From: Talaromyces rugulosus
Taxonomy: Eukaryota > Ascomycota > Eurotiomycetes > Eurotiales > Trichocomaceae
NCBI RefSeq assembly: GCF_013368755.1
Contig: NC_049564.1
Span: 814,001-878,000 of the forward strand
Reading direction: 5' to 3'
DNA: 64,000 nt
Positions 30,949-63,842 of this stretch are shown here, piece by piece. The notes beneath the pieces were generated by a model, which saw only the letters and a list, made by a program, of their open reading frames with translations, did not search any database and had not been told where the DNA came from. Position numbers and translations under genes: made by a program. Every line of letters begins with the position of its first letter. Within the stretch, counting starts at the first letter, position 1.

Positions 30949-31121
30949 TAGCTACTATAAATTTATATCTTACTAAAGCCAATTCACTATAATTAGAATA
31001 TTATTCTTTATAAAATTATCAATTTGAACCCATGTTTTACTTCCAATTTGTACCACGAAGCGTGGTTAGTAAGCATGCGCCAAGATCCCATAGGGTTATG
31101 TTGCGTTGCGCAGAAGTCTAA

Positions 31122-39497: not shown

Positions 39498-39547
39498 TCA
39501 ATGGAGCATAAGAAAGAAAATTACCAGCACATGACTATAGTGAGGCG

Positions 39548-39640
39548 AGGGATCTACAACCGCCAGTGCTACGTCAATATCTGTCTGCATAATACAGCAG
39601 ATTATATGGACTGCTTCTTATATCAGTCTAATCTTACAAG
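39548..39640 (+). repeat. 93-bp direct repeat, copy 2
   Basis: Second copy; 15 of the 18 differences from copy 1 are transitions and 11 of those are C-to-T or G-to-A in this copy. It ends 57 bp before the thiolase ATG. Confidence 0.9.
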
Positions 39641-39697
39641 GCATTGAGGAATAAAGGGAATCAGATGCACATGACCATCCACTATCACAAAGACAAC

Positions 39698-40999
<1,302 letters not shown>

Positions 41000-41435
41000 A
41001 TGTGTGCTTTTAGGTCTTCAACAGTTATGAATAATTGCGGTTTCGCTGTATTTAATGGTAATTTGCTTAAAGCCTGAGGTGTCACCATATATTTGCGTAA
41101 TCTGATCACGTTAGGATTTTGGTCTTGTTGGGAAATTCAACATTATTAACTAGCATAATACAAATCAGACTCTGGCTTGTAGTCTACACATACATACAAA
41201 ATAGAAGTATGCTCTCTTCGGTATATGAAATGATCAAGTCGTTTATAAGGAATTTTCTAAAACTTCTCTATGTGGTTAAATCCCATGAACAGAGCTTTCA
41301 TAATTATGTAGATAAAGAAATACCCACATTTAAGTGGCAAAAGAAAACCAAGTTTCTGTACTAAATTCAAGTAGAACAGTCATTCACTGCTAATACGCCC
41401 TACCTGCTATCAACCACTTTCTAGTTGTTCCCTAT
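41000..41435. other. Intergenic region
   Basis: Spacer between the convergent thiolase and FSH-type hydrolase genes. AT-rich; nothing recognised. Confidence 0.5.
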
Positions 41436-42335
41436 CTAGGTAACAACTGCCGTTTCCACCATTTTGCAAAACGCAATATTTACGGCGTCAATAGCGAGGC
41501 TATCCTGTGGCATCAAGTGACCGGCTCCTCCCTCCACCACCGTCGCTTGAGCACTATCACACAGGTTCAAAAGTGCTGTACAGCCGTCGATCATAGGATC
41601 ATCTGATCCAATGACATGGCAGGTAGGAAAGTGAAAGACTGTTCCAACCTCATCGGCGAGGACAAATTTGGATCCGTCGGCGGTATACGGTGCGTATCCA
41701 CCGTAGAAAAGCGCACATTTAAACGGATTAGGGAGATGGCGATCCAGGCGGGAGAGAATTAGAGCAGCGCCAATCGAAGCTCCTTCACAGTACCCAATTA
41801 GGCCATCGAAGGGCCCGTCTTGGTCAATGATGTCGTTCAGATACCCCACAGACCGGCCAATGCTCTCCTTGAACTGACGCTGCTCGTCCAATCCTTTCGG
41901 ATAGAGCCATTCAAACGCATGACGCCATATCTGTTCAGCACTGCCCTCGCCGGGCGTACCATTTACCATTTCGAGCAAGCCTGGCACCGTGGCTTGCAAA
42001 GGATACTCGACATAACGCAGGTGTGGCCCTACGCCTGCATATTGAGCTAGGTCATCGGAAACATTTGGTATTTTATGCAACGGTGGCGCGTATTGGAATT
42101 GGGCCTGGTATTTGGCGGGCAATGCGGTGCCAAGGGGGTCTTCAATATACTTAGGAGAGATTCAACACAACATAACATCTACAGGTAACTCACCTAGCTG
42201 TTCCTTGAACAACTACCATCAAAAACTCATTGTCTTAGCATTCCTCCTTGTTTATTACTGGAATCAACCAACCGTATGGCGAAGTGTACTTACCTGCTCG
42301 CCCATCCCGCCGCCATAGAGACAGAGGAATTTCAT
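41436..42335 (-). CDS. FSH1/LovG-type alpha/beta hydrolase, candidate polyketide-releasing enzyme
   Basis: Three exons (42294-42335, a 19-nt micro-exon 42194-42212, and 41436-42139) give 254 aa with a start 'MKFLCLYGGGMGEQLFKEQLDPLG' typical in pattern of the serine-hydrolase FSH1 family. In several fungal clusters (LovG with LovF in lovastatin synthesis) such a protein hydrolyses the finished chain from a highly reducing synthase that lacks a thioesterase, as here. The nucleophile motif is 'LIGYCEGASIG': Cys (codon TGT) where GxSxG is expected. The acid and base are visible in 'IGSDDPMIDG' and 'GGAGHLMPQDS'. Introns are 81 bp (42213-42293) and 54 bp (42140-42193). The protein may be a Cys hydrolase, transferase, or inactive. 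The micro-exon is inferred from phase and family fit. Confidence 0.8.
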
Positions 42336-44984: not shown

Positions 44985-45200
44985 CTATATATTTAAAAAA
45001 AATTAGATAAAATCCTTAATATTAGCTATGGACTAGGAATTATGATTAAATATACTAGTGAAGGTGTAATAACGGGAGTTGATATCTCTAAGCAAGTCCT
45101 ATAGAAAGTAAAAGAACTAGCTGCTAAGGCTAATGTGCATATAAAGGTCCCTGGTTCTGTGATCTTTGATCAAGGCGATGTCCTCAAGGGCCTTGAATTG
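44985..45200 (+). pseudogene. Relic of a class I SAM-dependent methyltransferase
   Basis: One frame reads 'ILNISYGLGIMIKYTSEG', then 'VITGVDISKQVL', a TAG stop, 'KVKELAAKAN' and later 'FDQGDVLKGLE'. This follows the UbiE/methyltransferase-11 pattern (ILDvGcGpG...GxVTGvDIS..vL.kA...a...V.F..GDvl.gLp). The replacements (Asp to Asn, Cys to Tyr, Gln or Glu to stop) fit C-to-T/G-to-A decay. No intact start or C-terminus remains, and the similarity runs straight into the hydrolase relic on the other strand. Confidence 0.55.
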
Positions 45201-45512
45201 ACTACCGCCGAGATAAATTGGAGGGGCGTATGGCGAAGGGTGAATATTTTGAGTCAGCAAGCTCGCTGTTAAATGTCCGCCTGCGCTATCGCCGCCGAGA
45301 ATAATGCTTTTTGCTTGGGTGCCTTCCTCCTCCTCGAGGAGAAACCGCAGACCGACCACGCCTTGGAGAGGCTGACACGGATAGTACTGCTCGGGGGGGG
45401 AGGGGGGGGAGGAAATACTCCAAGAACATGACCTGTTCCACTTTACAGGCTGCCGCGCAGCTGCATCAAAGAACCAAACGTCATGTTGTAACCTAGCGAT
45501 TCCATATTCCAT
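45200..45512 (-). pseudogene. Relic of an HSL/steryl-acetyl-hydrolase-type alpha/beta hydrolase
   Basis: The minus strand keeps a nucleophile elbow 'IILGGDSAGGHLTASLL' preceded by 'LQGVVGLRFLLEEE'. Upstream the frame shifts at a C/G homopolymer tract (45393-45410, G on the plus strand): 'QVMFLEY' is in a different frame from the rest. Both ends of the domain are missing. Read as a decayed fragment of a fungal lipase/esterase. Confidence 0.6.
45393..45410. repeat. Homopolymeric G tracts
   Basis: Two runs of eight G separated by one A, inside the hydrolase relic; a likely slippage site that explains its frameshift. Confidence 0.9.
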
Positions 45513-45914
45513 ACCTCGGTCACCGCTTCATTTTTCCACAAGATTAACATTTAACCTTGAAGAACCCGTGTGTGGTTCAATTTGTCAACACCTCAGTACA
45601 ACTAAGCCGGATCTAGATCCGTAACATCCGAGTATCGACGCGGAGTTTTCCCCAGTACTCCGCGAGAATAGAGTTCCCCGTATAAATAATATGGAGCAGC
45701 CCAATGAAATTATTTTCAACTACTCTAGTCAGCTTTTCCACGACTTGGTAAAATGGCTACCAGTGACTTATTGATACTGAACAACAATAATAGAAGTTAT
45801 AACAGAGAGGCATGAAAAGAAATACTTGTATTCCAATACTCTTTGCCTAGATAGGGAGGGACGTCTTAGAACAACTCCGGCATGCTGATCAATCGTGGAA
45901 ACACTGTTGTTTGC
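45513..45914. promoter_or_regulatory. Former promoter and 5' region of the GH32 relic
   Basis: Contains the inverted repeat at 45639, a TATA-like box at 45681 and an ATG at 45753 that might have been the original start. No intact coding frame here. Confidence 0.4.
45639..45664. promoter_or_regulatory. Inverted repeat CGCGGAG-N12-CTCCGCG upstream of the GH32 relic
   Basis: Perfect 7-bp arms, 12-nt spacer. CGG...CCG triplets fit a Zn2Cys6 dimer site. It is followed by TATAAATAAT at 45681 and lies upstream of the GH32 pseudogene. The same palindrome occurs upstream of both transporters and the membrane-protein/regulator pair. Confidence 0.6.
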
Positions 45915-47240
45915 CCAACTATCCACATCACAGTATCTTGTTGGATAAATGACCCCATGTGCCCCTGGTTATGACCCTAGGTCCAAGCGTTACCATCTCT
46001 TTTATCAATGTGAGTAGCTCAACGACTTTCCCACCGTGAAATAAAAGCAGGTAACTGAGTCGCAGTTGCAATAGGTAATCCATGGGGAGCTGAGTAGGGA
46101 AATATGTCCCGGGGTCATGTAACCAGCCCTGGTCTACTCACATGGCGCCGTTCGACCTACCAATCGGCTCTGGAGGCTGATCAGGAATATGGCAAGGAGG
46201 GCGTCTTCACAGGTTGTTTTTTATAACCACAGGGTATGGTTGAAGGGGTGCTTTACCGTCTTCTACTCCTCAATCTACCGCTTGTCTTCCCATTGGAGCA
46301 CACGACCATATCCGCGAGATGCTACCGGCTTGGCCATGGCAATTTCCAGCGATGATGGGAAGACGTGAAGCAAACCATCAGAAAATCCAATTTTGGGAGG
46401 TGAGCCGGCTGATGTAGAGGTAAAAGGTTTCAGAGACCCGTATATTGCCGTTTGGCCAGCAATGGATGAGCTCCAAGGCCTAATCTCGCTCTACACTATT
46501 GTTTCTAGTAGTATTCAGGGCGCAGGGCCAACGGTGTTTTTGTACGCTATATGCCTGGACAACTTGACTCATTAGGAATATCTAGGCCCTTTAATCATTT
46601 TGCCGGAAAGGTTCGAGCAGTCGAAGAAGTGGTCAGGGAACTATGGGATCAACTGGGAGTGTACCAACTTCATGACTCTGGAGACAGAATCGACGGCACG
46701 ACATTGTTTGATTCTAGGAATTGAAAGGGATGTGGAGCGGGATCATATCAAGGACCACCCACAACCTCTAAGCGGGCCAGTGAGAACGATTCGTTGTTCG
46801 GAGACCTCACCACGCAGAACAATGGAGTGAAATTCCAATGCAAGCACGGCGGGTACCTCGATCACGGCCAATTCTTTCCTTGATCCTACATCTGGGAGAC
46901 GCATTATGCACAGCTGGATAACAGAAGAAGATATCACTTGCGACTATGCCCGTCAGAAAGGTTGTAACGGCGCTCCGTGTATTCCACACGAGTTGGTTCT
47001 TCTCTGCCTACACAACGTCATAGCGGCGCTCCGCAGCGAGCTTTCAGAGATCACTAGCGTCGAGGTAATGTCTCACCCAGATGGTTCAACATCCCTATAC
47101 ACCCTGGGAATTCATCCGTTCTTTGAGTTCATGCGGCTCCGAGAAGACTGCAACGCAGGTCTTCCCGTCTTCCCCGCTTCGCCCTGCACCAAGTCGAAAT
47201 TTGCACCATCCAGGCTCCATGACTTTGCACACCAAATCTA
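45915..47240 (+). pseudogene. Broken GH32 gene (invertase/inulinase-type fructosidase)
   Basis: Family blocks appear in order but in different frames: 'TVSCWINDP' (nucleophile Asp of WMNDP), 'CAPGYDPRSKRYHLFYQ', a likely GTGAGT intron start at 46010, 'GNMSRGHVTSPGLLTW', 'ALEADQEYGKEGVFTGCF', 'SLAISSDDGKT'-like, 'GFRDPYIAVWP' (RDP motif) and 'WSGNYGINWECTNFMTL' (acid/base Glu in EC). Breaks: a 1-nt frameshift after WINDP, TAA after GCFL, TGA in place of Trp after DDGKT, TAG after DNLTH, and further frameshifts near 46835 and 47080. The C-terminal beta-sandwich is degraded where it meets the end of the neighbouring regulator gene. Intact relatives hydrolyse sucrose, inulin or levan. Next to an intact GH172 gene this suggests former fructan use. 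Confidence 0.8.
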
Positions 47241-49150
47241 CTATAACATATTTTCCAGGCCGTAGGCTTGATTCTTATCCTCTAGAAGCCGTTTCTTCAA
47301 CGTCTGCTGCAGGATTCTCAAAGACGGACTGTTGATTTCTACACTGCAGCCCGCTTTCGCGACCGAGGAAAGACACTCGGGAAGCAGGTCGAGACTAGCA
47401 TTGGCCAGGCAAGGAGTTTGTGCCGCTTTCAAAACCACCATTGTGGTAATGAATACGCTGTTCCCGAAGTGAATATTTGACGTGAGACGAGCCGCAGTGG
47501 AATGGGATGGCTAGTCATAGGCTTACCTGAGAAAAAGCGACCATTTGTGAATTAGACAGTCCTGGAAGGCAAATATGATGCTCGGCATCAGCTGGATGTA
47601 GGAATCAAAGAATCGCTGACAGTGATTGAGCAGCTGGATTTCGGCTACACCATCCTGCATTGCCTGGTAAACAGCCGGCCAGTAGATGGACAACTTGCAG
47701 CAGTAGTACTGGACACGGAGGAAGTTCGATAGTGATCCAATTTGATTTGCGCAATTTTGACTAGAATCCCTAGGGAACCGAATGCTTTCCGGCAGATAAT
47801 CATACCATTCGTCTAATTGGCGTTCCAATTCTATGGCAACTCCTGGCGCATAGGCTGACTGACCTGTTGAAGTTAGCGCCACCGCGGAGTTACACCGGTT
47901 CAGCATTCGCCGCATCGCTATCTCAGCTAGAAAGAATGACTGTGCCTGGTCTGGCCTGGTGCTGCCAGCTGAACAGGCGCTCGCGGGGAAATGGCTAGCT
48001 GGGCTGGTGGAGAGTTCTTCGGAAGGGAATTGCCATATATGAAGACAGTTCGGAAGCGGAACATAGTAATCAAGTTTCCATATGTTGCTTTTGGCAACAT
48101 CGAGCTGGACGCTCAGTTCACTGTGAGACCATCTTTAGCATCAGGAGTGCCTATTTGTGCAAGCGACTTGCCTCTCCAGTAACAGAATCGCCCAGTACGC
48201 TCGGTGGGTCAATTCAAGTACATCTGGATCTGTACCTTGTAAACCACTTCATGACAATCAGCATAGTAACTATGAATTCGTGTAGTCACCTACCTTTTAA
48301 AGAGGTTCTGGATCTTAAACGACGCCACTAGGCAGTAATCATGAGCCTGGCAGGGTTTGAGAAGGCAAGCGTAATGGATGCTCAAGAAGACCAGGCATTG
48401 AACAGAAACTAGAGAGCATTCCGCAACAACCAGCGGCAGTGATGAGAGAGCAGCTGTAAAGAATGGGTTCTCGCGGTCTGATGTGGGATCATGTGCCACA
48501 CAGCCGATAGCAGCCACCAGAAGAACTAAACATGACTGGCACGATGGCGTGAGAGGCTCAGACAGGACCCGGAAGTATTCCTCCGAGAAGTCTGATGCTA
48601 GGATTGGATAATAGATATGGATGCGCTCCGAAAAAGCGGCCAGTACCGTCACAGCCTGCTGGTGGGGAACGAAGAAGAGTCGTGCGTCGGTGCCGCTCGT
48701 TGAGCCCGTAAGGAAGTTGATTCTCTCGAGCCGGATGAGGTTTTGGGAGAAATCAGGCTCGAGTTCCAACACTACCATGATGGAGCTGGTTGCGAGCAGC
48801 CGAAATGGAGAATCTTCATGAGAGCTGAGCGCGGCCACATCTTCGTGGGGTTCTTGCACCGGTCCCGGATGCTTTTCGAGCAGACTGGTGATGTAGTCCA
48901 GGCGCTGGTTCACGACTTCTAGTTCCGATTCGATCCTGGAGGCGACGCGTAGCAGTTGTCTCAATAAGAGAATCATGTATTAAGAGGGTGGTGCGTACTT
49001 GTTCGGCGGGTTTGGGGGAAGCTCCTGATAGAAGCAGTCCAGTCCGCGCGCTCGGCAGGGATTGCACGAGGGTTTCAGACCGTCGCATTTGGTCCTTTTC
49101 GACCGGCAAGTGTCGCAGGCGAGAACCAATCTCTTCCGGGTCTTGACCAT
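47241..49150 (-). CDS. Zn(II)2Cys6 transcription factor, paralog A
   Basis: Fungal binuclear zinc-cluster regulator of 559 aa from exons 48999-49150, 48294-48935, 48172-48246, 47527-48120 and 47241-47457. The cluster is near the N-terminus: 'ACDTCRSKRTKCDG' then 'CNPCRARGLDC'. A short coiled region and a middle homology region follow ('RIHIYYPIL', 'AHRAYWAILLLESELSVQLDV'-like, 'SIYWPAVYQA'). Intron 48121-48171 uses a GC donor (GCAAGT), needed to join 'ILLLE' to 'SELSVQLDV'. Most introns are phase 2 and match those of the paralogs at 56925 and 61820. It is divergent from the GH172 gene with a 364-bp shared promoter, so it may control it. A start further upstream (49246) is possible but less like the paralogs. 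Confidence 0.85.
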
Positions 49151-49514
49151 GCTGACTGGTGATAATCCTTTTCCTTGATTCGTAGAGATGCGGAGTCGCT
49201 GCAGGAGACCGCGTGAGGCTGTAGCGTTTATGTCATCCCGCAGCATCTGTGGGGGAAATCACGGGCGGAGTGCTCAGACGATTCCACGGACACTACGCAA
49301 CAAATGTGATGATTCCTTGCAGAAAAACCGAGAATCATGGCATCCTTTGCTGAGGGGGAAGTCTTGCCAAACCTATCAGCGCATCTTTTAGGGAATCAAT
49401 GCTTGCGGTTGGACAGGTGTAAGAAATGACCAGCAATGGGCGCCTTTTCTTCTCTTTACCACCGAAATAATCGAAACAAGCGAAACCCCTTCTTCATCTT
49501 GTCTCAACATCACT
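49151..49514. promoter_or_regulatory. Divergent promoter of regulator A and the GH172 gene
   Basis: 364-bp shared promoter. It contains only degenerate versions of the cluster palindrome: GGCGGAG at 49264-49270 followed by ATTCCACGG (about 250 bp before the GH172 ATG), and TGCGGAG...GACCGCG at 49189-49213. These may be weak sites or chance. Confidence 0.4.
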
Positions 49515-50888
49515 ATGAATCCCCTCCTTGGAAACCACCTCCTGGCGGACATTACCAGGCACAGGGTTTCCCGCAGTGCCCGGGTCTCCAGCTGGGATCA
49601 GAAGGGGCTGAACGAAGATGCCTTCGTGGTCTTGCCTGGTGAAACTATGCTGCTCGCTGATCTCGAGGGCCCTGGTGCCATCACGCATCTGTGGTTTGTC
49701 CAGACGTGCAGAAAGATTCTGGGACCTGGGTTAATCCCATACTCGAAGTCCGGGGTGGCCATGATGGAGATTCACAACGCCCTCGGGCTCAATTACGAAG
49801 TAAATGACCCTGACTACTATCGCAAAGTACTCATCAAAATGTACTGGGACGATTCCGAAACGCCCAATGTGCTCGCACCTGTCGGCGATTTCTTCTGTCT
49901 GGGCCACTCTATGGCTGCGAATTTCCAGTCGCTGCCATTCACTGTATCCGTAAAGCCCTCGGAGGAGAAGAAATTTGGCGGGGCGGCCGCCTTCAACTGC
50001 TACCTGACGATGCCGTTCAACAAGCGTGCTCGCATCGAGATCGAGAACCAGAACGACGAGGCCTACATTCAGTATTTCTATATCGATTACGAGCTGTATC
50101 CCGAGCCCCTTCCCGGGAACACGCTGTACTTTCACGCCCATTGGCGCCGGGAAAACCCAACCAACGGCTGGGCCCCGTCTGGTATTCAGACAAACGGTCT
50201 GGAGACGCAGGTCAAGAACCTGGACGGCAAAGATAACTATGTTATTCTGGAAACTGAGGGCGCTGGTCACTACGTTGGCTGCAACCACTCGGTCCTCCAC
50301 TTTCAGGGGACCTGGTGGGGCGAAGGGGACGATATGATCTTCATTGATGATGACACATGGCCGCCCAGCATGCATGGCACGGGAGGGGAAGACTACTTCT
50401 CCCAGGGCTGGGGTATGCAGAAGAACGCCTATCCATTTTGCGGCACCATCATCCACGAGGAAGACGTGCCTAATTACCAGGTGAGCTATCGCTGGCATCT
50501 GGCCGACCCCGTCCGATTTAGCAAAAAGATCAAAGTTACTCTGGAATCTGGTCATGCCAACCACCTTCGTGACGACTGGTCAACCACTGCCTACTGGTAC
50601 CAAACATTGCCGGGTCCCAAGCTTGAAATCCTACCCGTAGCGAGTCGTCTCCCTCGGAAGCCCGAGATCCTCCCACCCGTCCTGGATTTATCTGATCAGG
50701 AGATATCCACGCTGAGTTTGGAAAAGAGAGAAAAGTTGACACAGCATCAAGAGAGGTATGATTTGTTCGTTAAGGATCGGAACGAATGGTTGGAGCGACG
50801 GGCAAAGGACTCGAGAGAACGGGCGATGAACAATGTGCAAATCTGCAAGGATATTCGTCTACGGTTCTTAAAAAGCCTTGAGGGGTAG
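49515..50888 (+). CDS. GH172 family (DUF2961) protein, predicted intracellular fructan/difructose-anhydride glycosidase
   Basis: A 457-aa intronless protein. It follows the DUF2961/GH172 pattern: 'LLADLEGPGAITHLWF' at the N-terminus, 'GDFFCLGH', 'LPFTVSVKPSEEKKFGG...NCYLTMPF', 'IDYELYPEPLPGNTLYFHAHWRRENP', 'ETEGAGHYVGCNHSV' and 'MHGTGGEDYFSQGWG' (Glu292 in the conserved GTGxEDYF block, a candidate catalytic residue). Characterised GH172 enzymes, from bifidobacteria, make or hydrolyse difructose dianhydride I and act on alpha-fructofuranosides; others act on alpha-linked furanosides. No signal peptide is visible, so action after import is likely. The last ~70 residues are a charged helical extension. 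It is divergent from regulator A and beside two sugar transporters and a GH32 relic. Family is firm, substrate inferred. Confidence 0.85.
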   Translation: MNPLLGNHLLADITRHRVSRSARVSSWDQKGLNEDAFVVLPGETMLLADLEGPGAITHLWFVQTCRKILGPGLIPYSKSGVAMMEIHNALGLNYEVNDPDYYRKVLIKMYWDDSETPNVLAPVGDFFCLGHSMAANFQSLPFTVSVKPSEEKKFGGAAAFNCYLTMPFNKRARIEIENQNDEAYIQYFYIDYELYPEPLPGNTLYFHAHWRRENPTNGWAPSGIQTNGLETQVKNLDGKDNYVILETEGAGHYVGCNHSVLHFQGTWWGEGDDMIFIDDDTWPPSMHGTGGEDYFSQGWGMQKNAYPFCGTIIHEEDVPNYQVSYRWHLADPVRFSKKIKVTLESGHANHLRDDWSTTAYWYQTLPGPKLEILPVASRLPRKPEILPPVLDLSDQEISTLSLEKREKLTQHQERYDLFVKDRNEWLERRAKDSRERAMNNVQICKDIRLRFLKSLEG

Positions 50889-51717
50889 ATCAAAGCAGTC
50901 AGCTACAGACCTGGTGAGGTAAACTGAGAGATCATTCAGCCTGTGGTTGTAGTACATTATCACAGGAGTGCTATTTTTCAGATCTCCTCGGGGGAATCAT
51001 CAAAGTTCCTAGCAGTAAACTTTGCTAACAAAGAAATATATTTTCGAGGAACATCACATGCAGTTTTGGGGAACTCCGGTAGAAATTTCTGATCATTTCC
51101 CGTTCCCCTAGGACCTTTTTATTTATTTTTATTTATTTTTTACATGTATTTTATGTTGGATCAGGTTTTCTATACTACGGCATCAGACTAACTTCCATTT
51201 AGAATTTCTGCTCATTTACCAATACGAATTTTAGAAGGCGGCCTTTGTGAATCCTTTCTGTCTCCACGGGATTGAGTTTTCCCCCCTCAAACCCTGTCCA
51301 GAAGCCGAACAACGAGTGGAATGTTGTGTTTTTTGTATATTCCAGTCCACTAGTTAGCGACTACTTTGCCTCCATGATCTCCGTCCAGATGTTTAGCCAA
51401 AAGCAGGTATCCGAGACATCCTAGTCTTCGTCGCGGAGTGCTGGACTCCGCGAGAAAACTTCGCCCCGCAGCCTCAGCAAGATCGCGCCACTCCCCCCGA
51501 CTTCCCCAATACTGTCGAACACATAGGCAGACAACGACATGGTAGCTCTGATCAATCGTCACGCCGACTTGGTAAACACTCTTCATAGGGAAGGAGATGG
51601 AGAGCGCCACTGAGATTGAGATCGATAGGCAAGCTTCAATCTTCGCCAAATGTCCTTGAGGATAGAATCACTGACTTGCAGAAGGATCGATTACTCAGTG
51701 GTTGACCCGTCCCGCAG
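50889..51717. promoter_or_regulatory. Intergenic region and promoter of the first sugar transporter
   Basis: About 830 bp. TTTATTTTTATTTATTTTT-type sequence at 51118-51140; the cluster palindrome at 51431-51453. No gene recognised. A frame upstream of 51718 is interrupted by TGA at about 51703. Confidence 0.5.
51431..51453. promoter_or_regulatory. Inverted repeat TCGCGGAG-N7-CTCCGCGA upstream of the first transporter
   Basis: Perfect 8-bp arms with a 7-nt spacer, ending 264 bp before the transporter ATG. Candidate Zn2Cys6 binding site shared with three other promoters of this locus. Confidence 0.7.
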
Positions 51718-53775
51718 ATGGCAAATGCTTATTTCACAAAGGCGGTTCTGCTTATGGTGTAAGTTCTCCTGTAACCCCTTGTGGAGGTCCTGGTTGACAG
51801 GAAACACCCCTCCAGGTCTCTGGATATCTAGCGGGGTTGTCATGCAAGGATTCGATTTGGTGGCTGGAGGTCAGCTGGCTGCTTTGCCAGAATTCCAAAG
51901 GCGATTTGGATATCCGCAGCCAGACGATTCTTATCTGATTCCTGCTCACTACCTTTCCGCCTGGAGCTCGATCGCTCCTGCATGCGAAATAGTTTCCACT
52001 TTTATCTTCGTTCCGTTGCTCGAGAGGTTCGGACGGAAAACAGGAATCCTGGCTGCCTCCCTCATTTCCACCGCGGGTGTCATTCTCCAGCAGCTGGCAA
52101 CTGATTGGCGAGTGCACCTGGCCGGTCGAGGTGTCAATGGTTCGTATGGACCCTGGGAGCGCCGATGAAGTTAGAATATACGACTTCTGTTGCTGATGCA
52201 GACCCAGGTATTGCGATTGGTATTATGTTCACCATCTCTCCACTATGGATTGGTGAAACTTGTCGGCCGGAACTTCGGGGTTTCTTCCTCTGTTTTTTCA
52301 ATACTAGCATTGTCTTCGGACAGTTTGCAATGTCGGTTTGGTATTTCTCGGTCATATAAAAATACATTGCTAATCTGTTCCTAGAGCCGTGGTGACTAGA
52401 GGTAGTAGCCATTTAGCTGGCAAATGGTGAGTTCGAGTATTTGTTCCCATCATAGTTGAAACATTTTGAGTGACCGTGGCAGGCAATGGTGGTTACCGAT
52501 AGTGGCAATGTATATCTTTCCAGGTAAGGAACATATTTCTCTCCTATTTTGTTTAACCATATCACTCTCTTACTTAATTTTTCCTTTTGCCCGCTCTTCA
52601 GCTATTCTCATATCTGGTTGGTTCTTCTTCCCCGAGTCTCCATACTGGCTGGTGCGACAGGGAAAGAACAGAGAGGCCCGGATATCTCTCCGGAGGGTCT
52701 ACGGCTTCAAAAACGAGGCATTCTATACAGCAGAAGTTCTCCGAATGGAGGCAGAAAACAAACGAGAGATTTCGACCCACGGTAGCCTCTCTGAGGGCTC
52801 CTACAGGTTTCTTGGCATCGATGTGTCGACTGAAGCCGAATGCTTTAATCGCACTAACCTTAAGAGAACTCTAACTGCAGTTTTCGTCGCCAGCGGACAG
52901 CAGATGATTGGAGCCACCTTCGTTATTGGCTACGCAACATATTTCTTGGAATTGATCGGAGTAAAAGATTACTTCGATGCGTCCATTGTCCTTTATGTCG
53001 TGATGCTGCTGTCCAGCATGCTGACCTTTCCACTCTCTGAAATCCTTGGCCGGCGAACGATGATAGTGAATCCTCAGTTTTTTCTGTGCTTCGTACTTTT
53101 CCTAATCGGTATTTTGGGATGCATCCCAGACCCAGAGAAAGCAAGCTGGGGTATTGTTGTCCTCATATATATCTGGGCCATCGTATATCAGCTTTCCATT
53201 GGAGCCGTAGGCTTCGTGTTGGCTTCGGAAATTGCTACAGCTCACCTGCGAAGTACTACTCAAGGTCTCGTTACCATCACCAACGCGTTGTGGGGGCTCA
53301 TTATGCAGTTCACGGTCCCATACATGGTATGAACACACGCGCCCTCTCAATCCATGTCAATGTCTCAAAAGTCTGCGACACTAACGATGCATTTGTCCGC
53401 TAAAACAGATCAATACTGATGCGGGCCACCTGGGCGGCAAAGTTGGATTTATCTTCCTCGGAACAGGTTCGATCGCAGCCATTGGAGGATGGTACCTCTA
53501 TCCAGAGACTAAGGTACAGCGAGATCACTTTGGAAGGGAAACCGTTCGATTATGAACTGACAAAAATGGCCCAGGGTATTTCTTTTGAAAAGATAGATGA
53601 GCTTTACGCAAGCATGACCGCTCCTCGACACTTCAGCCGAGCCGTGACCGTGCAGGGTGAAATAACGCCCCAGACAGGCAAGATAGAAGGCTCTGATCAT
53701 GTAGACGGGACCAACCCTTCTTCGCGATGGAGGGAGACTTTGAAGTCAGTAGCACGTCAGGTATTCATGATCTGA
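51718..53775 (+). CDS. MFS sugar transporter (oligosaccharide/alpha-glucoside permease-like)
   Basis: Plasma-membrane proton symporter of the sugar-porter family, 528 aa from eight exons: 51718-51758, 51832-52139, 52208-52331, 52385-52426, 52483-52523, 52602-53326, 53409-53513 and 53575-53775. Family signatures: '[20 protein letters not shown]' (TM1), '[10 protein letters not shown]' (between TM2 and TM3), '[10 protein letters not shown]', '[18 protein letters not shown]' (PESPRWL motif), 'LGRRTMIV' and 'YPETK' + '[11 protein letters not shown]' near the C-terminus. The pattern is closer to maltose/alpha-glucoside permeases than to hexose transporters, which fits uptake of an intact oligosaccharide. 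The N-terminal cytosolic part before TM1 is unusually short, because a TGA stops the frame just upstream; an extra exon or a shortened protein is possible. It lies downstream of the GH172 gene on the same strand. Confidence 0.82.
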
Positions 53776-54372
53776 AATCCCACCGTATTGAAGTATGGTT
53801 TCTTGCTTTCTGCTCTCTCGTTTGAAATGTGGTGATCTTGCATTCCCGGCGTGGATGCACGGGACTCGATTGCATTACACTCACTATCTACTGCTACGCT
53901 GTCATTTAAACAATAGGTCTATTCGTGATATAAAAGATTAGCAATATAAAAATATTTCTCATGCAGATTAAGGAGGACCGAGTATAATATGCTAGGATTT
54001 TACTCTACTATACGTCGTTTGACCAGCATGGTCCCTTCTAGCGCTATTGTATGCAAAATGTTCTTTGTTGGAGTTTTAGAATTGGGGTCACAATGTTTAA
54101 TCAGAAGAGAGCGAACTATAGTCGTAAAATACGTGCCTCTGACTCTTGATGTCTTCTCACTCGGGTACAAGTACAAAGGCAAAGTCACAATTTTAATCGC
54201 ACTATGTCATTGTATACTGTCTCACACCTATACCTCAAATATACAATGAGAAGCGAAGACTAATCCTTTGCCAAGTATTCCCCCATCATCGTCACATGGA
54301 CCACCATCGATAATGACCCTTCCCAGCTGTATACGATCGAGCACTTATCTTTCTTCCCTTCTCGCGATGCGA
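53776..54372. other. Intergenic region
   Basis: Spacer of ~600 bp between the convergent transporter genes; AT-rich, no gene seen. Confidence 0.5.
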
Positions 54373-56269
54373 TCATGCGGAAGTTTCGTGACCTTTGTCA
54401 AACTCGCGTTGCTCTTCTGTTGCTTCCTTGTCCTCAAATGCCTCGGCCTTGCCTCTCATTTCCGTGAAGGTGATGCTCGGCTTCCAACCCAAGCTCTTTC
54501 TTGCATCCTTAACTTCGCCGTAAAGCTCATCCACCTCTTCCAGCGTCAGACCCTTTGTCTCATAGATCATAAAGTAAACAAACGCTATGCACAGGAAACA
54601 GCAACCAAACCAAACAAAGAAAATCTTGGATTGCAGGTTCGCATTCCCGGGCCCGTAGTTGACCAGGTAAGGTGTTGCAAAGCCTAATGCCCAGTTGAAA
54701 AGCCAGTTGGTCGCAGTAGTTATAGAGAGCGATTTGGCTCTAGTCTTGAGAGGGAATATCTCTCCAGTTACGACCCTATTTAATTGGTTTTTCCTTTCAG
54801 AAAAGCTGCTTCAAAAGCGGGTGGGGAAAAAATGAAGGAAAAAGTAAGATGAGAAGAGAGAAAGATGAAACTTACCAGGCTATCGGACCCCATGAAGCTG
54901 CGAAAAAGAAAATGTATATGCAGATAAAGGCAATTGCGGCTTTCTGAGCGGCAGCATTGTTGACAATAATATTGCCGACACTGTCCTGGCTTGTGGTCGT
55001 AGTACCGAGAACTGCCACAAGTAGCTGTGAGATTGTCATGCCAAAAGCTCCCAGGAGCAGAACTGGTCGCCGACCCCATTTGTCAATTGCATAGAGACCA
55101 GGAAGAGTAGAAACGGAATTGACACAGTTAATGATGAGGTTAATCGCAAACTCATTTTTGACACCAGAGTTCTTAAAAAATTGTGTGCCGTAGTAGATGA
55201 TGAAATTAATGCCTGATAATTGCTGCAAGGCCTGCAGGAGACAGCCAGTAAGAAGACGCTTTGCCAAATTTCCCCGGACACATTCACGATATCCAGAGTT
55301 CCCCAGGCTGATTTCATACTGGTGGTTGGCTTGAATCTCCCCTAGCTCATCACGCAGAGCAGGATCATCCTCAGGAAGGCGACGGAGCCTGGCTAGGCTC
55401 TTTACAGCGCCGTTATAGTTGTCTTTTTTAATGAGATACCGAGGCGTTTCTGGGAGGAGAAGGACACCAATCACCAGGATAATCGCCCAGGCGAACTGGA
55501 CTGCAATTGGTATGCGATAGGACCCGGAGTCATTCCGATTATGGGTTGCATTGTTCACGACCGACGCAAGGAGAAGACCGATAGTGATTGCGAATTGATA
55601 AGAGCCAACGATAAACCCTCGGATCCATTTTGGAGCAGTCTCTGACTGATAAAGTGGAACTAAATAAATGCAAACGATATAATTAGCCAATTCTTTTCTT
55701 ACTTTCTTCCCAACACATATTCAACGAACAAGAACTTTGCTTGTCTGAGAAAAACGACACAAGAGACAAGTATTATACTAACCCAATGCAGAAATAAGCC
55801 CAACGCCAAGTCCTGCAAAAAAACGTCCGGCAAGAAAGAGCGGAATGGACGTTGCAGCGGTCTGCAAGATGACACCAAATACAAAGACACCGTTCGAAAC
55901 AATCAATCCCCAGCGACGCCCAATACTGTCGCCCATCGGGGCAGCACCGAGAGCTCCGAAGAAGGTTCCCGCCGAGAGAATTGACACAATCGCTGACGTC
56001 TGACTGGATGTGATAGTCAACTTGCCGGTGCTATCTCTATAGCCGGTTGAGAAGGTTTGAGACCAATAGGGCATGGCGATAATGCCGCTGATAGTGCCGG
56101 TGTCATAGCTAAAGCAATCAGCATGAGATCGAAGGCATCCTGTCCTGGATGTCGATAAAGACCAGACTCACCCGTATAGAATTCCCCCAAACGCTACGAA
56201 CCCACTAATCAGAATTGCAGGCCACGTCTTACCAGCGCTTTCTTTAGGCTTTTCCAATCGAAACCCCAT
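54373..56269 (-). CDS. MFS hexose transporter
   Basis: Sugar-porter family member of 536 aa from exons 56172-56269, 55783-56108, 54876-55659 and 54373-54775 (introns 63, 123 and 100 bp). Signatures: 'FGGILYGYDTGTISGIIAM' (TM1), 'GDSIGRRWGL', 'VPLYQSETAPKWIRG', 'LLPETPRYLIKK', 'LQQLSGINFIIYYGTQFF' (TM7, hexose-transporter QQLSG), 'DKWGRRPVLL', 'GEIFPLKTRAKS' and 'YETKGLTLEEVDELY'. Twelve membrane segments fit. It resembles fungal monosaccharide transporters, which import glucose or fructose at the plasma membrane. The cluster palindrome lies 255 bp upstream of its start. Confidence 0.92.
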
Positions 56270-56924
56270 TTTTTAGAAAATTGAAACAAAGGTAGTTCTC
56301 GGTCTTCTTGAATGTCCCAAAGACCCTAATGAGGGGGGCGGGGGCTTGGTATTTATGAGATAAACGGATAACAAAGACGTATGAGAACCTCCTGTGTTCC
56401 AACATTGTTTGTTATTATTGGGCATGATCAAGAAGTCACTCGCATTGGTAACAGCTAACTAGGGCATAGTGCTCTAGTATCTAGGTGGCACTTAGCAGAC
56501 CAATCAGACTAATCAATGGTGAACTCGCGGAGGGTGGAGATCTCTCCGCGAAATTGACAGAAGGCATTCGCAAATGGTTCCGAGGACATTCACCCAATGG
56601 TTCTGGTGGTTTGTTTGCTTAGTACGCTTCTTCCCTGTCTGTCTGTCTGTATGTTGGCATTAAATCCCTCAGTATAGCCTGTGCTACTCGGTACATTCAA
56701 GGGGATAGATCATAGGATCCGCCTAACCCCCGGTAAAAAGATAATTAGCGCTGACCAGCGGTCCTGACCGGTCACCAATTCGGACAAGATTGGGGGCCAT
56801 TGCTATGAGGAGTGAGGTAACTAACACCAAACCTTGAGCAATTATTTCTAGTAACGTTAAATAATAATAATAATACAGTAAACTTTCTACGAACAATAAT
56901 AATGTAAAGTGACTTCGTACAGCG
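56270..56924. promoter_or_regulatory. Promoter of the hexose transporter / 3' flank of regulator B
   Basis: 655 bp between the transporter start and the 3' end of regulator B. Holds the palindrome at 56525-56551, a short CTGT repeat at about 56636-56650 and an AATAAT run near 56860. No gene seen. Confidence 0.5.
56525..56551. promoter_or_regulatory. Inverted repeat TCGCGGAG-N11-CTCCGCGA upstream of the hexose transporter
   Basis: Perfect 8-bp arms with an 11-nt spacer, 255 bp upstream of the minus-strand transporter start (56269). Confidence 0.7.
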
Positions 56925-58975
56925 CTAACTTGAAGGCGATGCTTGATGGAAAATTCTCTCCTTCAGAATGGCCTCCATTTTGGCCAGCGAGGGACTGACT
57001 TCTGCCACGCTTTCGAAAAGATGAACTGCCTTTCCCAAACTCTGCAGGACTCCCGGCGAGACTGCACTGAGCAGGCACGGGGCCGTTGATGCTGTCAAGG
57101 CTGCCATCGAAATTGTAAACACGCTATATCAGACGTTCGGTTAGCTAATAAGAAATCGCTTCTACATATTGATGGAACAAATTACCTTGCATATAATGTC
57201 CAGATATTAGGTTTGCAGGTGCTCACAGAAATAGCCGCACATGCAATAAACTCAATGTAACTATCAAAAAAGCCACGACAGTGAAGAAGGAGGTCATCAT
57301 CGGCCTCGCCAGTAACCGATGCCTGGTAGACCGCTGGCCAATATATTGAAGCCCTGAATGCATAACATTGCGTATGCAGGAATTCCGCTTGCGCTAAACC
57401 CCTAGAAGGGACGCTGTCGTCGTTATCACCCCTAAGAGCCAATTCATCTGGAAGAAGATCGTACCACTCCTGCAATTGCTGCTCCAGTTCTGCTGCAATT
57501 ACAGGCGCATATGAGAATTCGACTTGGGACAACCTTCGAACAGACGATGTGCAACGTTGAAGCATCTTCCGCATCGCAATTTCTGCCACAAAATACGACA
57601 AGTCGTGGTGACGCAGAGCTTGCTCGTGCATTATCCCTTCGGCTTCATCTCCGCTAGCCTCGACTGGGAGGAGAGATGGGTACCATATCCAGGTCTCGTA
57701 GCTGACTGGAACTGTAGTAACTGAATCCATGCTCCAAATACTACTGTCGACCAGATCCAGCTGGACAGTGATCTCACTTTGAAAACGGTCAGCCAAATTG
57801 TAGCTTTCTGACGCCATATTGTTTGATAGCAAATTGTTCGAATAGGGTCAAGAACCTTTCAATCAAAACGGCAGTCCAGTAGCAGTTTCCAATAATTGAT
57901 GGCCGAGATAAATCATTCTCATCATCAGGGTGACTAGGAATAGGCCATCAATATTAGACAAGAGGGCCTTTTTTTTTTGGCGTTCAAGTCTGGGCGCTCA
58001 CTTTATCAACCTATCTTGAATTTTATGTGAGGCTATAGCCACGAAATCGTGTGCTCGGCATGGCTGGGCGTAGCACAGATAGAACATGCTAAATAAAAGC
58101 AAACACTGTGTGCTTCTAGTGCTGCTATCTGCCAGAACGCAGGGGAGCATGTCTTCCGCTGCTTGAATGTATATGTTTTCTGGGCGATTCTTCTGTGCAT
58201 GCACAATTGACTCATATCTGGCCAGAGAACCTATCGCTAAAACGAGGAGGGCTAGGCAAGAGTATACGGAGGGTTGAAAGGGTGCTGATATCACCTGCAG
58301 AAATTCATCCATATAATCCACGTGGAGAATGGGATACCAAATATGGACATGTTCAGCAAACGCGTTCAAAAACCTAGATTCCAACGGTGCTTGATGTTAG
58401 TCAAGAGGCCAAACTACTAAAGAGATAAGTGATCCCCTTGCCACTTACTCTAATGCCTGAGCAAAATCGACCATCACAACTGGGACACTGGACGGACGAG
58501 AGCAAAATGATTGACCTCTGCTTTCCATCTGCTCCAGTAGGACCGAAAATGATCGATCCAGCTTGAGAAGCGCCATGAATGACTGGTTCTTGATGGTCAT
58601 AATCGGGAAGCCGGCTAATGGATCCTGGTCACCAAAGGGATCCCACGGCAATTGCTCCTTGACCGAGTACGCACGCTCGGAAGCTTTGGTGTCTATGACC
58701 CTGGTAATGTGGTCCAGCTGTTTCCAAATCCTCGATAACTCTACTGCGAAACTGAAATTCAGGTTAGACGCTGGGCGAGATGCGGCGCAGTGCTTCACTC
58801 ACGGAGAGGGAGGGTCTGGGTTTCCATCGTAGAAACAGTCTTTGCTCCGACGCATACAGAACGAGCATTTGGGCCGCCGACCATCACATTTTGTCCGCCT
58901 TTCTCGACACGTATTGCAGGCCAGAGGACTCCGGTGTCGTCGGCCGTTCCGCGACAAGTGACTCTTAAGACTCAT
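56925..58975 (-). CDS. Zn(II)2Cys6 transcription factor, paralog B
   Basis: 571 aa from exons 58803-58975, 58449-58751, 58002-58373, 57856-57933, 57186-57776 and 56925-57123. Zinc cluster: 'ACNTCRERRTKCDG' and 'CSFCMRRSKDC' at residues ~19-45. Later blocks are shared with the other two paralogs: 'HVHIWYPIL', 'RAHDFVAIASHKIQ', 'YWTAVLIESEITVQLDL', 'VAEIAMRKMLQRC', 'SIYWPAVYQA' and 'SPSLAKMEAILKERI' at the end. All five introns (51, 75, 68, 79 and 62 bp) are phase 2. The DNA-binding and middle domains look intact. It sits between the hexose transporter and the small membrane protein, so a role in controlling sugar genes is plausible; it could equally be a competing or diverged duplicate. Confidence 0.87.
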
Positions 58976-60261
58976 GGGCTTTTTGCTTTCATCTACGGGA
59001 TTCTTTTCCTTTACGGAAGTCGATTAGAGTAACCTGTAATAATATAGTAATCTTTAATAGAATCATTTCAGGTGCCAAAAAGACCAATATAGGGAAAGGA
59101 ATGTTACGGCCGAGCCTCCAAAAACCGGCATCCCGTGCTAGGTACTAGTGTTCACTATCGCCCGGCACGAACGCTGGCTGTCCAATTGCATAGAAGGAAT
59201 GGGTCGTCTCCTTTGCCAGAATGTTTCTAAAATACGTCTAGTGCATTCTACTGCGGCTGGGAAACAACCCGGAAGGGAATCTCGTGACACTATAACTACA
59301 TGAAACTCATCTAGGCAGTCTTGTGACCAATGAGGATGCTGAAAATTCGGATTTCGCGGAGTGTGTGATGTTGATGGTGTGCTTTGCCAGTCAAATCTTT
59401 GCATGGCTTAGATTCTACACGATCAGCTATACGCAAATGCTCCGTTATTTTCCCGTTCCTGCTAATTTCATGAAGGTACGAATTCATGGGCGCATGCATC
59501 TCCTCTATACCGGAGCATGGTGGTCCGATAGAAAGCCTCGCTTTCTTACCTTGGATCCCTACCGTATTTCAACAAGCTCAAAGGAGATTTTAGGGCATCC
59601 GCTCGTCACCGGACAACGCCAAACGCACGTTTCGATAGGTTAGATAGCCCCACGTCTTCACTAGTAAATATTATTACATTTAATTAGTGCCTCTCCACAG
59701 GGGGCCATAGCAAAACTGTGCATGCTTGGCAAGGATGTATTTTCTTTAGGTCTCCAGGGAAATATTCATTTTTCCAGGCTGTACAAAATTTGCCAACGTG
59801 GGAATTGCTAGTGTGCCTCAAGAATGGTTAGCACACATGAGACAGCTTTGCTTGATGGAAATAACTGAATTGACTGTGTGTAAAGGTAATTACAGAGTTT
59901 GTGTTAATAAAAACCGTTTTCTTTGTTTGCTTACACGTAGGTTGGTCTGAGGCAGATGTGTCGACGTATACTGACATTTTCTCAACAGCAGTTTTCCACC
60001 ATTATATACTACAGCATGTCTCTTTTCCCCTCCTTGTCTCTTGTATGTCCCAGATAATGATATTCGGCTCATGCACAATGTGCGACGCTCACTGGACTTT
60101 TCAATGGCGAGATCTCATGGTGGTGGACGCTTTGGGGCGCATGCTCATCGGGGAACATCGATTGATTTCTGCAGTCTGATGCACGTCCGATCGGTTCAGT
60201 GGGCTCGTTCATCCAACACACGGGGTAAAAAAGAACAACTAGAGAATAGTTGGAAACAGAA
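58976..60261. other. Intergenic region upstream of regulator B
   Basis: About 1.3 kb with no convincing gene. A single TCGCGGAG half-site occurs at 59354-59361, about 380 bp upstream of regulator B. A 106-aa plus-strand frame (59323-59643) shows no domain or family likeness. Confidence 0.45.
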
Positions 60262-61307
60262 CTAACCTAAAGGGTGCATTCCGCGTTGTAGCAACCACCG
60301 GGCATTGAGTTTATCGAGCGCAGTCTTGAAATCATCTAGAATAACAGTGTCGCAGAGACATTTGAAAACGAAACACAGCTAGTGATTCGCTCCCATTCAG
60401 TATGTTGTTTTGGTCCAGGTGACATCTCCGAAAAGAAAGAAAACTCCCACCTTCCAGAAAGGATTGATCCCCATAGTCGCAGTGACCCGCAACGTTCCAG
60501 TCACGCTCAAGATATCAAGAATGAGAAATGTAATGGAGAGACCCATTGAAGCCAGCATGAGGCCAAATCGCGGAGATTCACGCACGAGCTCAATGATACC
60601 AAAATTATAATGCGTCTTGATCACCCAAAAGATATTACATGTTGTGAAGATCCACCAGGGGTCACTGGATACGCCAATATGTTAGCGAACAAGCCTGGAC
60701 ACAGAATGCATTGACACGATAAACATTGTGATCATACCGAAATAGCGCTTCCAGTGGTCGCATCTTCTCGTAGAAAGCAGCATCGATATTGTTGAAGTAG
60801 GCAAAGTTGGCGAAAATCTCTACTGCCCAGTACGGTTGAACGAGGACAATGGTCCCAATATAGGCGAGTGACAACCATCGTGCCATGAAGGCCTTGTTTT
60901 TCATCCAGGCGATCACATTATGCAAAGACCAGGAGATGATCAACCCAATCGCCGTTGATGCCAAATACCACCCGTACGCTGGTTCTGGGGCGAAGATGAA
61001 GGTTCCATGAGGCATGGCTAAGATCAACTGAAGTGACGCAATTAGGTACTGGGACAGGTGGTTGTGTTTCAGGTACAAATAGCTACTTTACCTCTAACAA
61101 GATCATCTTGTGCAGAAATACGCCTGATCGCATGTTTACATAGGTGATCGCGGCCATGATGACTAGGGAACCCGTCATTAGACCCTGCGACCAGGCCTCC
61201 AGGATGAGAGCGGCAGGGTCATCGACTGGTCGAGAAACGTCTCTCTTGACGAGGAAGGGCGCATGATCCAAAACATTTGGTTTTGAATAGATACTAGAAT
61301 TGTTCAT
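60262..61307 (-). CDS. Small fungal multi-spanning membrane protein of unknown function
   Basis: 278 aa from exons 61092-61307, 60738-61027, 60451-60664 and 60262-60378 (introns 64, 73 and 72 bp). It has about seven hydrophobic segments, for example 'GLMTGSLVIMAAITYV', 'YLASTAIGLIISWSLHNVI', 'LAYIGTIVLVQPYWAVEIF' and 'MLASMGLSITFLILDILSV'. Conserved-looking blocks are 'AMPHGTFIFAPEPAYGWYLAST', 'FANFAYFNNI', 'ELVRESPRFG', 'GINPFWK' and 'DDFKTALDKL'. It belongs to an uncharacterised family of ascomycete integral membrane proteins as far as I recall; no function is proposed. It is divergent from regulator C and shares with it a promoter carrying the cluster palindrome. Confidence 0.8.
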
Positions 61308-61819
61308 AATGGTAGATGGTAAGTACCATAAAATCCAGATCTTGAATGTAGGTTTTCACCCCGTGGGGTTGAGCTTTCTGCCCTTGCATCTCATTTATTA
61401 TTTCATCTTGCTATGCCCTCAAGGGATGGGCCCATGCTTTCCTCCTCGATCTCCCCGCACTGGAAATCCTGGAGAATGGATTCTCAGCAACGGTTGGGTG
61501 AATAATCAATAAATACGGCAAACGAGCTGTTATTGGTAGGGATAGGCATTGTCAGTCAGCCTCGCGGAGAGGAGGGCTATTCCGCGATGACTTGGCCAAT
61601 CAGACTCAAAGTTGCCCGCAAATTGCGAGGATACGTTATGAACCAGACCTCGCTTAAGTATAGTACGATACGCTTCATGGATCACACAGGTCCGTTAAGA
61701 AAGAAAAAGCAGCTTCAAACAGGTCAGAGCAGTTATATCAGCCGATCACTCCTAGAGGACAGGGCAAACTGGAATAGGATATACTACTTAGATCAAGATT
61801 CGATTAATTTGTAGGGCGC
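61308..61819. promoter_or_regulatory. Divergent promoter of the membrane-protein and regulator C genes
   Basis: 512 bp. Contains the palindrome at 61562-61587, 254 bp from the membrane-protein start and 232 bp from the regulator start. Confidence 0.55.
61562..61587. promoter_or_regulatory. Inverted repeat TCGCGGAG-N10-TTCCGCGA in the divergent promoter
   Basis: Eight-base arms with one mismatch and a 10-nt spacer. Same motif as at 45639, 51431 and 56525. Confidence 0.65.
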
Positions 61820-63842
61820 ATGGCCATGAATGCCCATCGGTCCACCTTCTTCGCCTGTGAGCAATGCCGGGAGCGCAAAAGAAGATGTAACAGAGCCAGG
61901 CCCAAATGCTCGTCGTGCATCGTTCTGGATGTGGAGTGTTTCTATACACCGGCTTCAGCTTCTCAGCCGTCACAGTCAGTCGTTTCATAGTGCTCTTCAT
62001 TTTCACTATTTTGTCTAGATTAATAATATTATAGCAGACAAGTGCAAGAATTCTCCAACATTCGAGAGAGGTTGGATTATATTGCACCATTGGTTAAAGA
62101 CCTCGGGGCTCCGCCTACATTCTGGAAACACGCCCCGTATCTCCAACCACAGGCTCCCCCCATCACCATCAAATCCCAATTCCTAATGCAGATGGTTGGA
62201 TTGCGATTAGATTTTCCGGCCTTTGTCTATCGTCTAGAAGAAGCCACACCGTATATTCCCGCGGCCTCCGTGGAGGGTAAGCTGCTCAGACTATCAGAGG
62301 AAAAAGTTACCGCGTATGTATGTTTCTTATCAATCAGCAATTAAAGTTCAAAAAAAAAAGGGAAACCTCTAATTGCGTCTCACTAATAGGGTTATACGCA
62401 TATTCACAGAGGAGGTTCACGTGTGGTACCCCATCCTCCATCCGGACATCACCAATCACTTCTTTGAGACGAACAGCTCAGGTTTCCCACCTTCAACCAA
62501 GTCCTGCTCATGTCTCCTCGTTGCATCAATCGCGTTTATACTGAGGAAGGCACAATCAGAGTCTATCTATTCTGAAGCTGCCTTGTCAATGGTTCCGATA
62601 GTGCTCCAAGAGGACAGTGTGGTCAGTATTCAGTGTTTAATTCTCTTGAGTATACACTTTGCCTGTCGAGTGCAGCCACGGCAATCCTACGATTATATCC
62701 GAATAGCCTCCTTCCGTATACACTCTCTCCTTAGAAGGTACGTTTCTCATCTCAGCCACTATGAAGGAAGACGCGGGCTTTGTGTGGCAAAATATACACA
62801 CCATATGCCGCTAACTTGCAGCTAGAGAAGAAGCCTTTTCGGAGAGGTCGACAGAATGGCAACTGCTAAAGCGCATATATTGGGTAATATACATGATAGA
62901 AAGGTCTACCTGCGATTGATTTCCCTTCACAACCTGAAACATGCGCCTAACGATAAAGACAGTGAGATTTCCATGCATTTAAACTTATCTACAGCGTACA
63001 ATCGGCGACGACCTGGTGGCTCTTATGCCCCAATTCCCTTTACCACCAATGACAAGTCTTGGGACATCCTCGCTGAATCAAGTCCGTCTAGCTCATGCTT
63101 GACTCCGTCACCAGATACTCCTAGTCAATCGCAGCATTATCCCCTCGACTTTACCAAAGAACTCCACTTACAACAATTGTTAGACAAGTGCATGGACTCA
63201 GCGACAGGAGATTCATACCCTATCCACCCAACTAGTATATCCTCTGCGGAGGAAAGGCTCAGTTTGCAACAGTTATTGGATTCTCTGCCACCCATACCGC
63301 CGTTCAGGGTGACTTCAATGCCCCAGGATATATCCACTCGCCACCAGCACGGTACTCTGCTTCGGGCGAAATATCACGCATATGAGATCTCCAGCTACTG
63401 GCCGGCAATATACCGTGCCACTCTACTTAAATCTGCTGACTCAGAGCTACTACCTTACGGTCCACTCTTCGTTGAATCGATAGTAAGCTTCTTGGGTACA
63501 GCCAATGTCGCCGGTCGGTCATGTATCCCGAAGTCCTGGTCACTTTGTGCAAGGTATGTGTGTGAAATCACAGCAATTCTGCTTCTCTCCCTTTTTATTT
63601 TTTTTTTTTTTTTTGCAGTTGTCGGTTCTAAACTGTTACATCTGAATAGCCTTTTTATCGTGTCCATGGTAGCTGTTTGGACAGTAGACAATCTGCGCCT
63701 CCAAAGCCCGTTTCTACCTAGGCTCCGGGGATATCTCAAAGATACCTTGGATACTCTTAAGCAATTTAGCGAGCTTAGCCCGTCAGTGAAATACATGGCA
63801 GAAGTGCTAGAGAACAGGTTGCAGGAGATTGACGTTCTGTAA
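61820..63842 (+). CDS. Zn(II)2Cys6 transcription factor, paralog C
   Basis: 546 aa from exons 61820-61974, 62038-62313, 62390-62737, 62826-62903, 62963-63553 and 63650-63842. Zinc cluster: 'ACEQCRERKRRCNR' and 'CSSCIVLDVEC' very near the N-terminus. Shared blocks: 'EVHVWYPILHPD', 'YDYIRIASFRIHSLLRR', 'RIYWVIYMIESEISMHLNL', 'SSYWPAIYRA' and 'SPSVKYMAEVLENRL'. All introns are phase 2 and lie at the same places as in paralog B, so the genes arose by duplication. It lacks the fourth-helix residues 'AEIAMRKML' seen in A and B, which may mean divergence in that segment. Regulation through the palindrome upstream, possibly by itself, is inference. A second Met at 61826 is an alternative start. Confidence 0.85.

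What the first reader, a model, noticed from the sequence alone, without database searches (positions are those of the whole stretch)
45600..63842. Candidate fructan or difructose-anhydride utilisation cluster built around a GH172 enzyme
Seen: an intact GH172/DUF2961 gene without signal peptide, a GH32 relic, an oligosaccharide-permease-like transporter, a hexose transporter, a small membrane protein and three Zn2Cys6 paralogs are contiguous. Known: characterised GH172 enzymes act on alpha-fructofuranosides and difructose dianhydride I; GH32 acts on sucrose, inulin and levan. Inference: the fungus imports a fructose-containing oligosaccharide, cleaves it inside the cell by GH172, and regulates the set locally. 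I do not know of a described fungal GH172 pathway.
Basis: partly seen in the sequence, partly recalled or inferred. Interest (0 to 1): 0.88.

Follow-up and report, generated by a model that had tools for sequence, protein, structure and literature searches.

The report
Fungal inulin cluster with GH172 enzyme
A mould carries, side by side, two apparently secreted enzymes that cut the plant sugar store inulin, two sugar transporters, three gene switches and a gene of bacterial origin for an enzyme that makes or opens a rare ring-shaped fructose sugar, which gives a fungal reaction first reported in 1982 a concrete candidate gene and pathway.

The parts
45950..47265 (+). GH32 pseudogene (relic), several stops and frame changes; nearer to the C1 GH32 gene than to the two inulinases; limits approximate
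   Evidence: PF00251 39.7 bits with 3 stops; frames read with stops shown; tblastn 34% over 152 aa to the C1 GH32
47241..49246 (-). TF1, Zn2Cys6 regulator with Fungal_trans domain, divergent from GH172
   Evidence: gene model; PF00172 4.1e-9, PF04082 4.6e-8
49515..50888 (+). GH172, predicted DFA I synthase/hydrolase, single exon, no signal peptide seen
   Evidence: PF11175; 7v1v best solved relative; active site; model and fold search
51718..53778 (+). MFS1, sugar permease that sources name alpha-glucoside transporter (TRUGW13939_07070); start chosen after the Talaromyces proteolyticus protein
   Evidence: PF00083 2.9e-76; exons; homologues and linkage; N-terminus
54373..56269 (-). HXT, hexose transporter (sugar porter family)
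   Evidence: model; PF00083 7.1e-129; nearest solved chains are plant Sugar transport protein 10 and other sugar porters
56925..58975 (-). TF2, Zn2Cys6 regulator, paralogue of TF1
   Evidence: model, motif, PF00172 2.4e-8; start estimated by hand
60397..61307 (-). MEM, small membrane protein of unknown family
   Evidence: model; no Pfam hit
61820..63842 (+). TF3, Zn2Cys6 regulator, distant paralogue of TF1 and TF2. Next to it, beyond the window, follow the exo-inulinase (C4:878213-879954, -) and the endo-inulinase (C4:880710-882260, +)
   Evidence: motif at 61856-61939 and blastp to TF1/TF2; first exon placed by hand; inulinases:

Best explanation
A fungal inulin-utilisation gene cluster of about 22 kb. 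Outside the cell a secreted endo-inulinase and a secreted exo-inulinase cut inulin to inulo-oligosaccharides, inulobiose and fructose. The hexose transporter takes up fructose; the second permease (MFS1) takes up a short fructo-oligosaccharide such as inulobiose, or DFA I. In the cytosol GH172, a retaining alpha-fructofuranosidase acquired from Actinomycetota, interconverts inulobiose and DFA I. One or more of the three Zn2Cys6 proteins regulate the set locally. Shown here: gene content, kept active site, predicted fold, position inside an actinobacterial tree, and linkage of GH172 with MFS1 homologues in other fungi. Inferred: secretion, substrates of both permeases, cytosolic location, enzyme activity, regulation, and the direction in which GH172 works.
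Against: No GH172 row shares a contig with an endo-inulinase row in the lists (0 of 81), so outside T. rugulosus the link to inulinases runs only through MFS1; 20 of 29 named fungal GH172 rows showed no MFS1 partner in the capped lists. The three GH32 genes with open frames all begin with a hydrophobic stretch; no cytosolic enzyme for inulobiose is seen. CGGN8CGG sites are absent from both intergenic regions beside GH172 and weak overall (4 seen, about 2 expected; 63 patterns tried). The five Streptomyces loci nearest to the fungal clade have no GH32 directly downstream by the best hit, and L014 has none at all. No expression or activity data.
Confidence: 0.75

Rival explanations
1. Same enzyme, opposite direction (compatible with the cluster reading): GH172 mainly makes DFA I from inulobiose, as a non-reducing, poorly accessible reserve or privately held sugar, rather than opening DFA I for food.
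For: Equilibrium about 9:1 towards DFA I for alphaFFase1 and a similar bias reported for the A. fumigatus enzyme; no cytosolic-looking intact GH32 in this genome; one GH32 neighbour is a relic.
Against: The bacterial loci pair GH172 with GH32 and transporters, as for catabolism; a cytosolic fructosidase of another family was not sought.
Confidence: 0.35
2. GH172 acts on D-arabinofuranosides of bacterial walls, as other GH172 enzymes do, and stands by the inulinases by chance.
For: alphaFFase1 itself also cleaves alpha-D-arabinofuranosides; GH172 includes exo-alpha-D-arabinofuranosidases (8ic8).
Confidence: 0.06
3. A decaying or accidental neighbourhood: the genes do not work together and the cluster is being lost, as the GH32 relic suggests.
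For: One broken GH32 gene; the distance between GH172 and MFS1 differs between species by locus number.
Against: The other nine genes have open models; GH172 is 93% identical to its nearest listed relatives, with every catalytic residue kept; the endo-inulinase is 83-88% identical to those of four other Talaromyces species.
Confidence: 0.12

Closest known systems
alphaFFase1 (BBDE_2040), DFA I synthase/hydrolase of Bifidobacterium dentium, PDB 7v1v, GH172 founder
   Same: Fold, catalytic glutamates, -1 and +1 subsites, no signal peptide, GH32 and transporter genes nearby
   Different: Fungal; N272 of the calcium site is Asp here; MFS permease in place of an ABC system; the GH32 neighbours look secreted
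Difructose-anhydride synthase of Aspergillus fumigatus (EC 3.2.1.134), with AFUA_5G00510 suggested as its gene
   Same: Fungal enzyme reported to make DFA I from inulobiose; GH172 homologue
   Different: The gene link is a suggestion in PMC8605356; a search for its locus numbers found no other paper; its sequence was not compared here
Three-stage inulin pathway through DFA I proposed for Streptomyces davawensis (PMC8605356)
   Same: Intracellular GH172 beside GH32, with uptake
   Different: There a secreted GH91 makes DFA I outside; here endo/exo-inulinases cut inulin; GH91 was not sought in this genome
InuR inulin regulon of Aspergillus niger
   Same: Secreted inuA/inuE, sugar transporters, Zn2Cys6 control, CGGN8CGG sites
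   Different: The passages that I saw name no GH172 member; kinship of TF1-TF3 to InuR was not tested
GH172 exo-alpha-D-arabinofuranosidase 8ic8 and the related chains 8ah3, 4kq7
   Same: DUF2961 fold
   Different: Lower structural similarity; the +1-subsite Lys is missing in 8ah3 and 4kq7 where aligned

Membership tests
GH172, DFA I synthase/hydrolase type | DUF2961 (PF11175) domain over its full length | tested here: met
   profile positions 1-235, E 1.2e-85
GH172, DFA I synthase/hydrolase type | Nucleophile E291 and acid/base E270 | tested here: met
   E292 and E270 here
GH172, DFA I synthase/hydrolase type | +1 subsite E85 and K147, needed for inulobiose | tested here: met
   E85 and K147 here; among the 120 listed homologues E in 103 and K in 98
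GH172, DFA I synthase/hydrolase type | Calcium ligands N31, D33, N272 | tested here: inconclusive
   N33 and D35 kept, third ligand Asp instead of Asn, as in 119 of 120 homologues
GH172, DFA I synthase/hydrolase type | Two jelly rolls plus C-terminal helix | tested here: met
   model pLDDT 91.9; 442 residues, 5-454, aligned to 7v1v
GH172, DFA I synthase/hydrolase type | Hexamer with active site between protomers | not testable with these tools
   only a single chain was modelled
GH172, DFA I synthase/hydrolase type | Interconversion of inulobiose and DFA I | not testable with these tools
   needs an assay
Exo- and endo-inulinases (GH32) | Both GH32 domains and best match to a solved inulinase of that type | tested here: met
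   1y4w 689 bits, 3rwk 846 bits; PF00251 and PF08244
InuR regulon | InuR homologue and CGGN8CGG promoter sites | tested here: inconclusive
   sites weakly enriched, none beside GH172; homology of TF1-TF3 to InuR not tested
Exo-alpha-D-arabinofuranosidase type of GH172 | Closer similarity to 8ic8 and kin than to 7v1v | tested here: not met

The most novel reading that the evidence does not exclude
Fungi across Ascomycota, with related GH172 genes in Basidiomycota, carry an actinobacterial GH172 that travels with a dedicated permease, forming a eukaryotic route of inulin use through the cyclic sugar DFA I. In T. rugulosus, lacking a cytosolic inulobiose hydrolase, the enzyme locks imported inulobiose into DFA I as a private reserve.
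Probability: 0.35. Interest if true: 0.75.

Novelty: new variant of a known kind. Interest (0 to 1): 0.56.

Why it matters
An enzyme activity reported in 1982 from a mould (DFA I synthase, EC 3.2.1.134) had, as stated in the 2021 paper, no identified fungal gene beyond a suggestion. This locus gives a candidate with both catalytic residues and both inulobiose-specific residues, a matching pathway context and a permease partner that recurs in distant fungi, so the question can be settled with a few assays. It would also be a clear case of a bacterial sugar enzyme adopted by fungi together with fungal transport and control genes.

Full report
Identity and extent. The window is G000:C4:814001-878000 of a 35.76 Mb genome. 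The endo-inulinase past its end is identical to TRUGW13939_07076 of Talaromyces rugulosus on a contig of 5,361,510 bases, the length of C4, so the organism is T. rugulosus. The gene row is: GH32 relic, TF1 (-), GH172 (+), MFS1 (+), HXT (-), TF2 (-), MEM (-), TF3 (+), exo-inulinase (C4:878213-879954, -), endo-inulinase (C4:880710-882260, +). MFS1 is TRUGW13939_07070, which leaves five numbers between it and the endo-inulinase, as in my models. To the left lies a polyketide-synthase region with a DDE transposase; to the right, after 68.3 kb counted in window coordinates, a Zn2Cys6 gene, an NmrA-like gene and a methyltransferase. I place the cluster at about 45.9-68.3 kb.

GH32 genes. The genome shows four GH32 loci by PF00251 (counts are lower bounds): exo-inulinase, endo-inulinase, the relic, and one on C1 whose exons are open but which I did not model in full. 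The exo-inulinase scores 689 bits to the solved exo-inulinase 1y4w and the endo-inulinase 846 bits to 3rwk, sharing with it the WMNEPNG motif. The relic is nearer to the C1 gene (34% over 152 aa) than to the inulinases. None of the three open ones looks cytosolic, so inulobiose in the cytosol has no obvious GH32 hydrolase. This is the weak point of a purely catabolic reading.

Linkage in other fungi. No fungal genome collection was at hand, so I used contig lengths and locus numbers in the homologue lists. Of 81 GH172 rows that I entered (of 120 listed, chosen mainly from the fungal clade), 11 share a contig length with one of 117 MFS1 rows. Nine of these are named, of 29 named fungal rows. 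The locus numbers are close in Exophiala sideris (PV11_04163/04160), Cadophora M221 (IFR05_007124/007127), Elasticomyces (LTR27_008126/008124), Saxophila (LTR77_001928/001931) and the yeast Trichomonascus (TRICI_005049/005048, permease 53% identical); Aspergillus spectabilis has model numbers 206337/206335 on one 84.7 kb contig. For Xylogone, Fusarium oxysporum f. sp. vasinfectum and Cadophora MPI only a shared contig of megabase size is known, so closeness is not shown. Nine of 119 endo-inulinase rows share a contig with an MFS1 row, T. rugulosus included; Aspergillus hancockii (BBP40_010624/010626) and A. nanangensis (FE257_003688/003687) are close by number. No GH172 row shares a contig with an endo-inulinase row (0 of 81). 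A survey of DUF2961 proteins (PMC8812541, passages seen) reports that in Talaromyces amestolkiae DUF2961 is fused to a fungal regulator domain; whether that is a true fusion or a joined gene model I cannot say, but it again puts GH172 beside such a regulator.

Bacteria. 79 loci with GH172 were fetched (the best of 385 relatives). 68 of 79 hold a GH32 match and 58 of 79 have it directly downstream on the same strand within 600 bases. From 135 GH32 match rows in 105.6 Mb of 20 of these 79 genomes (summed by hand, split genes counted more than once, the paired genes themselves included), about 2 are expected in all loci together. Many loci are close relatives (Arthrobacter, Paenibacillus), so the counts are not independent; 11 of 79 have none. 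The five Streptomyces loci most like the fungal proteins (L013, L014, L060, L064, L082) are the weakest here: by the best hit none has GH32 directly downstream, and L014 has none. In Phytoactinopolyspora and Jiangella, the next nearest, GH172 lies with LacI regulators, a solute-binding protein, permeases, GH32 and a PfkB kinase.

Origin. In a careful tree of 59 rows (30 fungal including the window, 29 bacterial) the fungi are one group (100/99), next to Streptomyces (95/90), then Jiangella, Phytoactinopolyspora and Solirubrobacteraceae (100/98), then Nitriliruptor (100/97), when rooted on alphaFFase1 by my choice; six long end branches were flagged there. A quick tree of 135 rows, 76 of them unnamed, agrees that all 30 fungal rows fall in one 71-row group without a named bacterium. 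This points to transfer from Actinomycetota to fungi. The GH172 gene is one exon, while its neighbours have introns, except the endo-inulinase, which is also one exon.

Regulation. PMC5468973 (passages seen) gives CGGN8CGG as the putative InuR site. Four occur in 3,978 bases of intergenic sequence, two of them between the inulinase genes; about 1.9 are expected from 50 in 104 kb. Two of 200 shuffles reach four, but 63 patterns were tried, and none lies beside GH172. I take this as weak.

What was known. DFA I formation from inulobiose by A. fumigatus was reported in 1982 and 1989 (cited in PMC8605356; originals not seen). Kashima et al. noted 16 fungal homologues and suggested AFUA_5G00510. 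The InuR papers (PMC10142829 and PMC5701360, passages seen) list A. niger inulinase genes under distant gene numbers, and the passages name no GH172. The library searches named under Tried and rejected showed no description of a fungal GH172 gene cluster.

Verdict. A real, functional-looking inulin cluster with a DFA I-type GH172; a new variant of a known kind. The direction of GH172 in the cell is the open and most interesting point.

Noticed in passing
window 23118-42161: Highly reducing polyketide synthase pieces (31.1-38.2 kb) with thiolase, FSH1 hydrolase, epoxide hydrolase and carnitine acyltransferase genes, and a Tc5/pogo-type DDE transposase at 29186-30862.
   Followed up: partly
window 44500-45000: AT-rich stretch (27.8% GC) beside the alpha/beta hydrolase fragment at 45117-45512, at the left edge of the cluster.
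   Followed up: no
window 51718-53778: MFS1 has a 65% identical relative named EcdC of Aspergillus pachycristata, which I recall as the transporter of the echinocandin gene cluster; a sugar permease may have been taken into that cluster.
   Followed up: no
window 49515-50888: GH172 of T. rugulosus is 88% identical to that of Aspergillus spectabilis over shared columns (78%) while A. ambiguus and Monascus are at 63 and 67%, which suggests transfer between fungi.
   Followed up: partly
L071:10001-11353: The GH172 match of this Paenibacillus locus contains a stop codon when translated over the reported range.
   Followed up: no
window 60397-61307: Predicted multi-pass membrane protein without any Pfam match inside the cluster.
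   Followed up: partly
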